This document shows positions 54,599-57,911 of a DNA stretch of 64,000 bases, one piece after another. The notes under the pieces were generated by a model that was not told the origin of the DNA, searched no databases, and worked only from the letters and a program-made list of their open reading frames with translations. Made by a program: the position numbers and the translations under genes. Numbering within the stretch: the stretch's first letter is position 1; each line of letters begins with the position of its first letter. Origin of the DNA: Thermoplasmata archaeon (GTDB lineage: Archaea > Thermoplasmatota > Thermoplasmata > RBG-16-68-12 > SOIM01); the NCBI GenBank assembly GCA_023140195.1, contig JAGLME010000014.1, positions 81,656 to 145,655 on the forward strand. The letters are read 5' to 3'.

Positions 54599-54727
54599 AT
54601 GAAGGAAGAATCGCAAAATCTAAATAAGGAACACATCGATGCTTCTGTTACAATCTGCTTTCATGGGGAGGAGAGGATAGATATTGCGCAAACTCACTCT
54701 GGACTTTACCAGGAGGAAGATTTATGA
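54599..54727 (+). CDS. Small ORF coupled to the 54.7 kb gene
   Basis: A 42-residue acidic frame (MKEESQNLNKEHIDASVTI...) preceded by GGGTGA. It ends in TGA overlapping the ATG of the next gene (ATGA). The overlap supports translation, but A/T-rich TCTAAATAA inside it could instead be the promoter of the next gene. Confidence 0.4.
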   Translation: MKEESQNLNKEHIDASVTICFHGEERIDIAQTHSGLYQEEDL

Positions 54728-55788
54728 GTAGCAAACTTGAGTCCAGTCCGCTCATTAATCTCATGTCAAATAGGGAAGAAACCGAAAAATCCAATGTCCT
54801 ATTCACAATAACCACATTAGAGAACTCGGACTCTTTTCACAGAGTCCTGCAAAACATAGGATTCAAGGAAATGCATGAGGATAGTCAAGGTTTAATGTCC
54901 TATAGGCATTGTTCAGAGAAGAACGCGGCCAATATCATTAAAGTCGGTTTTGATGAGGAACACAAGATAGGTGCGTTCATTACTAAATGGCGGAAGAGCG
55001 ACGAAATTCCAAAGAGACTAGAAGAACCATTGCGCTTTGAGAACAGAATAGCACAACTTTGGATTAAGCCACTTACTCTGTCCAAAATGATGGATAGACT
55101 CAGAGAAGATTTTCGTGGCCTCAAAGTAACATGGTTTTCAGGGATAGCAGATCCGAAACTCTGCAGAGGAATTCGACGCCCGGAAGTAGAAAGATCTCTC
55201 CAGTACGGTGGAGAGGATGGCCTAAAGACTTTGGAGGAGATGAAGAAAGAATATGGAATAATGCCAAAAATAGTCGAATTCTCAATCCCGAATGTGGGGG
55301 GCTACAGGATAGATAACAGAGGGATAGTCACTGTGAGGCAGGGGACTCTTGGACCTGTCTATGATGCTATTCTGAAAGCTGTTAGTGACATTCAGCCTCT
55401 GTTAGAGTCGTTTGACCAATCTAGAGTCGAAACAGTTCCATCAACACTTTCTGAATATTCCCTGAATCTCAGAAAAGTGTCCCCCTTGACAGTGAAACTG
55501 GGCAGACCACTCTTCACAAGTGAACTGGATCGTTTTGAGTATATAGTGAGTCGCGAAGAACTCTTCTCCACAATGAATCGTTATGTCAGAGAGGGTGATG
55601 ATGAGTCGGTTGCTTCCTACTATTCTCTCTATCTCGATGAGAAGAACTATGCCTCCTTTGGTGTGGATTTCTCAGGGAGTGACTACACATTCTCGATTTA
55701 TCCCGACAAAGAGAAAAGCCTACCTTCAATGATTAGCTTCTACAGTGCATTGTACGACAATCTAGAACGAGGTATTGAAGCTGCGTAA
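54724..55788 (+). CDS. Uncharacterised protein of the PD-(D/E)XK operon
   Basis: A 354-residue soluble protein with a good SD (GGAGG). Two similar halves may exist: LFTITTLENSDSFHRVLQNIGFKEM near the start and VTVRQGTLGPVYDAILKAVSDI later, but I recognise no family. The composition is A/T-rich compared with core genes, a sign of transfer. It is 15 bases upstream of a PD-(D/E)XK gene and probably acts with it, perhaps as a sensor or specificity subunit. Confidence 0.65.
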   Translation: MSSKLESSPLINLMSNREETEKSNVLFTITTLENSDSFHRVLQNIGFKEMHEDSQGLMSYRHCSEKNAANIIKVGFDEEHKIGAFITKWRKSDEIPKRLEEPLRFENRIAQLWIKPLTLSKMMDRLREDFRGLKVTWFSGIADPKLCRGIRRPEVERSLQYGGEDGLKTLEEMKKEYGIMPKIVEFSIPNVGGYRIDNRGIVTVRQGTLGPVYDAILKAVSDIQPLLESFDQSRVETVPSTLSEYSLNLRKVSPLTVKLGRPLFTSELDRFEYIVSREELFSTMNRYVREGDDESVASYYSLYLDEKNYASFGVDFSGSDYTFSIYPDKEKSLPSMISFYSALYDNLERGIEAA

Positions 55789-55803
55789 GGTGAGGGGTTT
55801 TCT

Positions 55804-56862
55804 TTGGTCGGATTCGATAAGTGGATACAAACACTCCCATCAAGGCACAGAGACCTGGTGAAGAAATATAAGAGGGAGGGATTGAGAGGGTCAGCAACCG
55901 ATGAGGCAACAGAGAGAATAGAAACCGACCTAGATAGACAGAGTCGGCATGACCGCATCGTGGGTAAGATTGCTCTACTTTTCACTGAAGGCGAGGAAGC
56001 TGCTAGCAATACGAAATGTCAGTTTGTGACTTATGATCCACTAGTTGAATTGATGCAAAGCAATGCTGACCTCCTGATATTCGAGCCAGAAAAGGAGATT
56101 GCGTTGGTAATCGAGGTAAAAACAAACGCAAATCCAATAAGTGACCTCAAGAAATCTAGGGAGGTTGTAGAATCCAATCGTGAATATCTGGAAAGCATTG
56201 TGAAGAGTCAAGTGATTGACGTGAAGTATATTTTGGTCGTCGATAGTTTTGTGAGAGCTATTGACTTGAAAAGGGGATGTACTCAGAATGCCTTTGCATT
56301 GGGCTATATTGAAGGGAATGAATTCAAACTTCATGATGGTTGTCCGACGAATCTGGAAAGAGTTGACTTGATTCTATCTCGGGGGGTTCAGCTTTTCATG
56401 GGCGACTCCGTTTATGTGATGCTGAATTCCCACCATTTCCATATTCTGTCCAACACACTGATTGAGATTTGTCGAGGGAAGCTAAGAGAAGCAGGAAAGT
56501 CAGGTGAGGAAACTGAAGTGAAAGTATTCACTAGAGGAGAGTTCAGAGAGACATTTCAAAGACTGGCTTCTATATCCAGCGTTGAACATGGGAGTGCCTA
56601 TGAGAAATGCATAGAAGGAAGACTCAAAAAGGTAATTGAGGAAGGGCTTCAATCAGGAGTGATAATGAAAACCAAGGAGAAGGATACATATCGAATCTAT
56701 TCCCAAGCAACAACTTCTTTAGTAAAGATTCTAGAGACCATGGAACGCAAGTACATACACAATTATGTTGAGAGGACTAAAGAGAAGATCGCGGAGGATA
56801 ATGCTAGGAGCCGATATGATCAGAAGTACGGTCACCTGCAGGAGAAACTTGATGTTTCTTGA
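55804..56862 (+). CDS. PD-(D/E)XK nuclease-like protein
   Basis: A 352-residue protein from TTG 55804 with GAGGGG upstream. The nuclease core shows D89 in NADLLIF and E104-V-K106 in ALVIEVKTN, the PD-(D/E)XK pattern. An N-terminal helical part includes DRQSRHDRIVGKIALLF, and the C-terminal half (about 200-352) is helical and basic. Such nucleases occur in restriction and abortive-infection systems. The substrate is unknown. Confidence 0.68.
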   Translation: MVGFDKWIQTLPSRHRDLVKKYKREGLRGSATDEATERIETDLDRQSRHDRIVGKIALLFTEGEEAASNTKCQFVTYDPLVELMQSNADLLIFEPEKEIALVIEVKTNANPISDLKKSREVVESNREYLESIVKSQVIDVKYILVVDSFVRAIDLKRGCTQNAFALGYIEGNEFKLHDGCPTNLERVDLILSRGVQLFMGDSVYVMLNSHHFHILSNTLIEICRGKLREAGKSGEETEVKVFTRGEFRETFQRLASISSVEHGSAYEKCIEGRLKKVIEEGLQSGVIMKTKEKDTYRIYSQATTSLVKILETMERKYIHNYVERTKEKIAEDNARSRYDQKYGHLQEKLDVS

Positions 56863-57207: not shown

Positions 57208-57411
57208 ATGGTAGAGGAAATGGTTACCATTAGGAACATGACGATCAAGGCGGACGATGAGAAAGAATTGACTGAGAAGGTCAACAAGTGGATGTTGGAG
57301 GCTCCAGACCTCCACCGATTCCTTTTTGCTACACATTATCAATGTTATAATCCCAGAACCGATTCGTTCATCTGGTCATCTCAGATTTGGTATGAAGCCA
57401 AGAAAGAATGA
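57208..57411 (+). CDS. Small protein translationally coupled to the HEPN gene
   Basis: A 67-residue protein (MVEEMVTIRNMTIKADDEKE...) with C-terminal aromatic-rich part (HYQCYNPRTDSFIWSSQIWY). Its TGA overlaps the ATG of the HEPN gene (ATGA). A likely partner or antitoxin of the HEPN protein; family not recognised. Confidence 0.6.
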   Translation: MVEEMVTIRNMTIKADDEKELTEKVNKWMLEAPDLHRFLFATHYQCYNPRTDSFIWSSQIWYEAKKE

Positions 57412-57911
57412 TTCTCCATCCCACAGAACTTCTGGGAATCCTAGCTAAACCAACAGAATACTACAATGAGTCATATAGGGAGAATCATGACCCTGAAATT
57501 GACAAGGTCCTCCAATTTGGGAGAGATCATGGTAACGTCTTTGGCAGGTTGGATCGAACGGATTTGAAGGCATTCATAGTTCCGGAGTGTGTCGGTGAGG
57601 GAGGGTTGACTGAGCCCCCAAACAAATACGTGAAGAAAGCCTCGGAAGTACTCAGGGGGGAGTTGGGGATCGCCTACGATTGCGAGAAATGCAGAAGTGA
57701 CAAAAAGGAACGTTGCAAGGGCATTCAACCGGCCAATCACGACTTTCAGGATTTCGAGTCCTTGATTAGGATTTTGTATCAGATAAGATGCAATCTGTTT
57801 CATGGCGAAAAACTAGACCCCAATGAGTGGCAAAAAAAGCGGAATCAGAAACTAGTGAGAAAGGGGAACATCGCCTTGAAGATAATACTGGAAGAAGTGG
57901 CTGGGGAATAG
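57408..57911 (+). CDS. HEPN-type protein with RX4H ribonuclease motif
   Basis: A 167-residue protein. The C-terminal helices contain YQIRCNLFHGEK, with R127 and H132 forming the RX4H motif of HEPN RNases. A small Cys cluster (CEKC, ERC at 92-103) may bind metal. HEPN proteins act as toxins or effectors in toxin-antitoxin and CRISPR-linked systems. The coupled upstream gene could be its inhibitor. Confidence 0.72.
   Translation: MILHPTELLGILAKPTEYYNESYRENHDPEIDKVLQFGRDHGNVFGRLDRTDLKAFIVPECVGEGGLTEPPNKYVKKASEVLRGELGIAYDCEKCRSDKKERCKGIQPANHDFQDFESLIRILYQIRCNLFHGEKLDPNEWQKKRNQKLVRKGNIALKIILEEVAGE

What the first reader, a model, noticed from the sequence alone, without database searches (positions are those of the whole stretch)
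54599..56862. Candidate conflict operon with a PD-(D/E)XK nuclease and an unrecognised partner
A 42-codon ORF, a 354-residue protein and a PD-(D/E)XK protein are tightly packed with SDs and ATGA overlap, A/T-rich, and sit in accessory DNA. I recognise no partner family. A nuclease with an unknown sensor protein in such a region is a typical layout for an undescribed defence system.
Basis: partly seen in the sequence, partly recalled or inferred. Interest (0 to 1): 0.6.

Follow-up and report, generated by a model that had tools for sequence, protein, structure and literature searches.

The report
Archaeal sensor–nuclease pair with swappable effector
Two neighbouring genes in this archaeal genome form a patchy, mobile, archaea-only pair (an unknown partner protein and a DNA-cutting-type enzyme) that is probably an undescribed antiviral module; in some salt-loving relatives the enzyme's active site has died, and there a membrane protein gene sits beside the pair, as if it had taken over the killing role.

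Summary
The pair is real and conserved. ORF A (54724-55788, 354 aa) and ORF B (55804-56862, 352 aa) match no Pfam, NCBIfam or PADLOC family, but 47 homologues of A turned up in a scan of 84,980 prokaryote genomes. All are archaeal, and wherever enough sequence was available A is followed directly by a B homologue, apart from one truncated extra copy and one orphan A. B has a PD-(D/E)XK-like fold with a winged helix; its site (H49, E82, D89, E104, K106) is kept in 36 of 50 pairs, including this one, and lost in 14. Next to lost-site pairs lies a membrane-protein gene: 13 of 14, plus one held-out degenerate locus, against 0 of 36 intact pairs. Two unrelated membrane families accompany at least two independent losses. 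Broken B versions remain under purifying selection. The pair is patchy, absent from the nearest genomes, and found on plasmids, in a pleolipovirus and near BREX-related and restriction loci. Best reading: a mobile archaeal immune or toxin-type module in which A senses or regulates and B cuts nucleic acid, with a membrane effector substituted in some lineages. Pairing, site loss and gene association are shown; sensing, cutting and antiviral activity are inferred. The 42-codon ORF has no support.

The parts
54724..55788 (+). ORF A, 354 aa: partner/putative sensor. Archaea-only family; AlphaFold2 model mean pLDDT 89.6, alpha+beta with several helix-plus-antiparallel-sheet modules resembling TBP-like (helix-grip) lobes
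   Evidence: phrog_24372 E=8.5e-30
55135..55266 (+). Most conserved stretch of A (residues 138-181: F138, R152, R157, Y161, D165, G166, E172, Y177, G178, P181), equally conserved whether the partner nuclease is intact or dead
54711..54716 (+). AGGAGG Shine-Dalgarno-like motif 7 nt before A's ATG
   Evidence: sequence
55804..56862 (+). ORF B, 352 aa (TTG start): PD-(D/E)XK-type nuclease core, then winged helix, then long C-terminal helix
55948..56121 (+). B active-site stretch: H49 (55948-55950), E82 (56047-56049), D89 (56068-56070), E104 (56113-56115), K106 (56119-56121); all intact here
56434..56697 (+). Predicted winged-helix region of B (residues 211-298)
   Evidence: AlphaFold2 secondary structure; weak Foldseek matches to Stn1 C-terminal and MukE chains
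54599..54727 (+). 42-codon ORF overlapping A's start codon; no evidence that it is a gene or part of the system

Best explanation
A and B form a two-gene, horizontally mobile conflict module of archaea. A is the sensor or regulator; its helix-grip-like lobes probably contact nucleic acid or a viral product. B is a PD-(D/E)XK nuclease with a winged helix, held inactive or targeted by A, and released or recruited on invasion to cut invader or host nucleic acid (restriction or abortive infection). In two haloarchaeal branches B's nuclease has died; there B serves as an adaptor, and a co-encoded membrane protein (a one-helix ~200-aa protein, or a ~490-aa pentapeptide-repeat protein with two C-terminal helices) replaces it as effector. 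The copy in this window is the nuclease-intact, two-gene type. Shown: pairing, active-site conservation and loss, membrane-gene association, purifying selection, mobility. Inferred: A's sensing, A-B contact, cutting, membrane killing, antiviral role.
For: Pairing: 47 of 48 pattern hits across GTDB species genomes are A homologues, all archaeal; those with enough sequence downstream have B next, usually -4 to +9 nt away, apart from the truncated extra copy L060; profile searches find both in 42 of 42 genomes, mostly one adjacent pair each; B was never seen without A in 390 Thermoplasmatota genomes. A and B distances covary (Mantel r=0.53, 0 of 2000 permutations as high). Nuclease: H49 34/34 aligned, E82 36/36, D89 36/36, E104 34/36 in the 36 B proteins that keep K106; element order fits a PD-(D/E)XK core; weak structural matches include Can2, 2okf (fdxN excision factor) and bunyaviral endonucleases and phage PD-(D/E)XK proteins. 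Effector swap: membrane gene beside 0 of 36 intact and 13 of 14 degenerate pairs, and beside the held-out degenerate locus L042; two unrelated membrane families in two separate clades; full-length T3 in 35 genomes lies at degenerate pairs. Selection: degenerate B still constrained, e.g. dN 0.08 against dS 0.82. Mobility: 6 of 390 Thermoplasmatota genomes, haloarchaeal plasmids, pleolipovirus Harhisp1. Context: 6 of 15 DUF499 genes in 40 genomes lie within 20 kb of the pair.
Against: No function has been measured and no A-B complex was predicted. A's TBP-like assignment rests on weak Foldseek matches (best usable E about 6e-4 to RnlA, low TM-scores), and its modules show no sequence similarity to each other. 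The membrane genes were noticed before being counted, and only two independent clades (three on the A tree) underlie the association, so the Fisher p-value overstates it. One orphan A exists (L066). In the window the pair's neighbours within a few kb are mostly uncharacterised.
Confidence: 0.58

Rival explanations
1. Toxin-antitoxin / replicon-maintenance module: B is a nuclease toxin and A its antitoxin, kept to stabilise plasmids and proviruses rather than to fight viruses.
For: Two closely packed genes on plasmids and in a pleolipovirus; A's structural matches include the RnlA toxin of a known TA pair; several copies in one genome (Haloterrigena H1).
Against: Both proteins are large (about 350-380 aa), A is the more conserved of the two, and many copies are chromosomal. 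A solitary A exists.
Confidence: 0.2
2. An accessory restriction factor: A-B is a backup nuclease for neighbouring BREX-related (DUF499) or restriction-modification systems.
For: DUF499 genes near the pair in 6 of 40 genomes and N6-methylase genes near it in several; a 2026 survey describes many backup nucleases at such loci (PMC12839542).
Against: Most pairs, including the one in this window, have no such system nearby (G000 has neither PF04465 nor PF02384 matches), so dependence cannot be general.
Confidence: 0.12
3. A DNA-metabolism or mobile-element maintenance pair (replication or recombination) without an immune role.
For: RdgC, a DNA-binding ring protein, is among A's weak structural matches; the viral copy sits next to an Orc1-type replication gene.
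Against: Patchy distribution, frequent location near defence genes, and loss of the nuclease site together with gain of membrane proteins fit poorly with DNA repair.
Confidence: 0.1

Closest known systems
PHROG families phrog_24372 (A) and phrog_35712 (B)
   Same: A matches phrog_24372 at E=8.5e-30; 10 of 34 B homologues match phrog_35712, best 2.4e-156.
   Different: PHROGs give no function; the window's own B does not reach phrog_35712.
PADLOC HEC-02B (Hma-embedded candidate)
   Same: Short match over the PD-(D/E)XK motif of a few B homologues (E 2.5e-4 to 0.009).
   Different: The best-matching HEC-02B model is only 171 positions long; the window's B and most B proteins do not match; A matches no HEC model.
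RnlA/RnlB (RNase LS) toxin-antitoxin
   Same: A's weak Foldseek matches include RnlA, and one A homologue weakly matches the RnlA_toxin_N model (E=0.034); TBP-like domains are described in some RNase LS proteins (PMC3710099).
   Different: A has no HEPN RNase match; B is a PD-(D/E)XK protein, not RnlB.
Effector-swapping immune systems (short Argonautes, CBASS, Avs; from general knowledge)
   Same: Works like them: a conserved sensor is coupled in different lineages to a nuclease or to a membrane effector.
   Different: No homology to any of their sensors was found; confined to archaea so far.
BREX-related DUF499 (Hma-like) systems
   Same: Recurrent neighbours in haloarchaea.
   Different: Different genes; the pair also occurs without them.

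Membership tests
PD-(D/E)XK nuclease superfamily (ORF B) | D...(D/E)-x-K catalytic motif | tested here: met
   D89, E104, K106 present in the window; in the 36 homologues with K106, D89 is in 36 and E104 in 34
PD-(D/E)XK nuclease superfamily (ORF B) | Helix - beta hairpin carrying D and ExK - helix - strand core | tested here: inconclusive
   AlphaFold2 order (H32-59, E73-77, E90-94, E99-105, H111-124, E139-146) fits, but Foldseek matches are weak, none below E=0.001
PD-(D/E)XK nuclease superfamily (ORF B) | Metal-dependent cleavage of nucleic acid | not testable with these tools
   no assay
HEC-02 (PADLOC) | Full-length match to HEC-02B with a HEC-02A partner | tested here: not met
   Window B has no match; a few homologues match only the motif region; no A matches HEC-02A
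RnlAB toxin-antitoxin | HEPN RNase domain with R-x4-H in RnlA | tested here: not met
   A has no HEPN match in Pfam, and its predicted model is alpha+beta throughout; RnlA matches are partial
RnlAB toxin-antitoxin | RnlB antitoxin partner | tested here: not met
   Partner is a PD-(D/E)XK-type protein with no Pfam match to RnlB
Type II restriction-modification | Cognate DNA methyltransferase next to the endonuclease | tested here: not met
   No methyltransferase beside the window pair; G000 has no PF02384 match; only some relatives have one nearby
TBP-like / helix-grip proteins (ORF A) | Lobe of helices packed on an antiparallel five-stranded sheet | tested here: inconclusive
   Predicted element order fits in modules 1 and 3; weak Foldseek matches to TBP, RnlA, CENP-N, RdgC; no sequence repeat
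Antiviral defence system | Reduces virus propagation | not testable with these tools
   context only

The most novel reading that the evidence does not exclude
An undescribed, archaea-only immune system in which one conserved sensor (A) and adaptor/effector (B) work with B's own nuclease in most lineages, while in at least two lineages the nuclease site was lost and an unrelated membrane protein was recruited as effector, including in a temperate archaeal virus that may use it against competitors.
Probability: 0.5. Interest if true: 0.8.

Novelty: new variant of a known kind. Interest (0 to 1): 0.62.

Why it matters
[quoted passage not shown] A recurring archaea-only pair invisible to PADLOC, Pfam and NCBIfam would help fill that gap. 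The link between nuclease death and presence of a membrane gene gives a natural experiment for how immune sensors exchange effectors, and it is testable in genetically tractable haloarchaea.

Tried and rejected
Family libraries: no significant match for A or B in Pfam, NCBIfam or PADLOC; nothing in solved structures by sequence. Viral contigs: a degenerate pattern gave only three chance hits, and a direct protein search found no relative. The five-row alignment was too divergent for the search for related loci. HEC-02 membership rejected. A repeated-lobe TBP reading of A was tested by profile comparison of its modules and got no sequence support. A channel reading of the pentapeptide membrane protein, suggested by eye, was not supported by Pfam. 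Three independent nuclease losses, seen on the A tree, were reduced to 'at least two' because the B tree joins the T-type losses. The 42-codon ORF was dropped. The Vibrio hit (L024) is a chance match. Two searches for flanking or empty-site genes were uninformative on the right-hand side.

Full report
The observation. The window lies in an archaeal genome (G000, 2.98 Mb); the homologue found in the same order (G016) is a named Thermoplasmatota assembly, so G000 is taken to be Thermoplasmatota. By reading the sequence, no ATG, GTG or TTG lies upstream of A's ATG in its open frame. The 42-codon ORF overlapping A's start has no match anywhere; I drop it.

Accessory position. In 60 relatives only one other genome, of the same order, has an A homologue. 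Genomes of the same genus and family keep the left-hand neighbours (48.4-50.4 kb) but lack the pair. In 390 genomes of the phylum A occurs in 6 and B in 4.

Finding relatives. A and B have no significant match in Pfam, NCBIfam or PADLOC; A matches phrog_24372. tblastn found A in the pleolipovirus Harhisp1 and five haloarchaeal plasmids, followed by a second gene of about 350-380 aa, interrupted by a stop in one of them, which is a weak relative of B. A DNA pattern built on A's invariant residues then gave 48 hits in one genome for each of 84,980 species; 47 are A homologues and all are archaeal: haloarchaea, Methanomicrobiales, Methanothrix, Methanophagales, Methanoperedens, Nanohaloarchaea and Thermoplasmata. 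B lies directly downstream wherever the contig allows, except for one truncated extra copy in Methanothrix (L060); a 4-nt overlap is common. Profile searches of the 42 genomes found both genes in all of them, side by side. A divergent pair exists in G142 and an orphan A in G086.

What the proteins are. AlphaFold2 gave confident models (A 89.6, B 91.0 mean pLDDT). B has a core whose element order fits PD-(D/E)XK nucleases, a winged helix and a long C-terminal helix; structural matches are weak but include several proteins of that superfamily (Can2, 2okf, bunyaviral endonucleases, phage nucleases). A is alpha+beta; weak matches to RnlA, CENP-N, RdgC and TBP suggest helix-grip lobes, a fold that binds nucleic acid in several proteins. 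No sequence repeat was found in A, so this remains a lead.

The active site and its loss. Across 50 pairs, 36 keep K106; in these H49, E82 and D89 are invariant where aligned and E104 is present in 34 (S and Q in the other two). In the other 14, E104 and K106 are always lost, H49 is not among the common residues, E82 remains in 6 and D89 in 11. A's conserved residues are nearly unchanged in both sets. Degenerate B genes are not pseudogenes: they are full-length and, in the one pair where dS is not saturated, dN is a tenth of dS.

The third gene. Reading the neighbourhoods showed a membrane-protein gene beside degenerate pairs. One kind (T3) is about 160-220 aa with one N-terminal helix, on the same strand just upstream of A; the other (P3) is about 490 aa, pentapeptide repeats plus two C-terminal hydrophobic helices, divergently transcribed. 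Counted, it is 0 of 36 intact against 13 of 14 degenerate. The exception, L051, ends about 200 bp upstream of A and cannot be judged. A locus left out of that count, L042, is degenerate and has T3. In 35 genomes all the strong full-length T3 matches lie at degenerate pairs; one more distant relative (E=1e-23) does not. P3's five near-full-length matches do too, though P3 belongs to a wider haloarchaeal family. Trees put the P-type loss in one clade and the T-type losses in one (B tree) or two (A tree) clades, so there are at least two independent events. The p-value of 4e-11 ignores relatedness and should not be read at face value; the force of the result lies in two unrelated membrane genes marking two separate losses.

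Context. Copies sit on plasmids and in Harhisp1, a temperate virus shown to be active (PMC7911831), and in Halorubrum lacusprofundi on a megaplasmid that carries several defence systems (PMC10544981). DUF499 genes of BREX-related systems lie within 20 kb of the pair in 6 genomes (6 of 15 such genes), where about 0.2 would be expected by chance (my estimate from genome sizes); other copies lie near DNA-methylase genes.

Interpretation. The simplest reading that fits is a mobile conflict module: A senses or regulates, B cuts, and in two branches a membrane protein has replaced B's cutting while B is kept as an adaptor. Inactive nuclease domains are proposed to act as sensors in other immune systems (PMC12839542), so B in those branches could instead be part of the sensor. 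Toxin-antitoxin, backup-nuclease and DNA-maintenance readings remain open with lower weight. Nothing here measures antiviral activity.

Limits. The pattern scan depends on one motif of A, so relatives lacking it, bacterial ones included, could be missed. Neighbour genes were named partly from annotation in plasmid records and partly by reading.

Noticed in passing
57208-57911 (+): A 67-aa ORF overlapping (ATGA) a 167-aa protein with an R-x4-H stretch (RCNLFHG) typical of HEPN RNases, just downstream of the pair; possibly a separate HEPN toxin-antitoxin-like module. Weak PHROG match only (E=0.0075).
   Followed up: partly
L066 (G086:C20:781-1824): A homologue without a B partner, downstream of an apparent membrane-transporter gene.
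   Followed up: partly
L067 (G142:C94): Very divergent A-B pair (B with PD...EHK) in another genome of the phylum, suggesting a wider superfamily.
   Followed up: no
L154 (Methanoperedens, G457:C107): B has E104 replaced by Q, and a KAP-NTPase with pentapeptide repeats related to P3 lies nearby on the opposite strand; possibly a third effector type.
   Followed up: no
L004 / L182 (Harhisp1): The virus carries T3-A-B and, beyond its rep gene, a pentapeptide-repeat membrane protein distantly related to P3, plus a CopG/RelE pair.
   Followed up: partly
L007 6700-7815: B gene on plasmid pHSR-Est01 is interrupted by an in-frame stop and annotated as two genes: an apparently broken copy.
   Followed up: no
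Haloterrigena sp. H1 (L019, L030, L061): Three A-B copies in one genome, two nuclease-intact and one T3-type.
   Followed up: no
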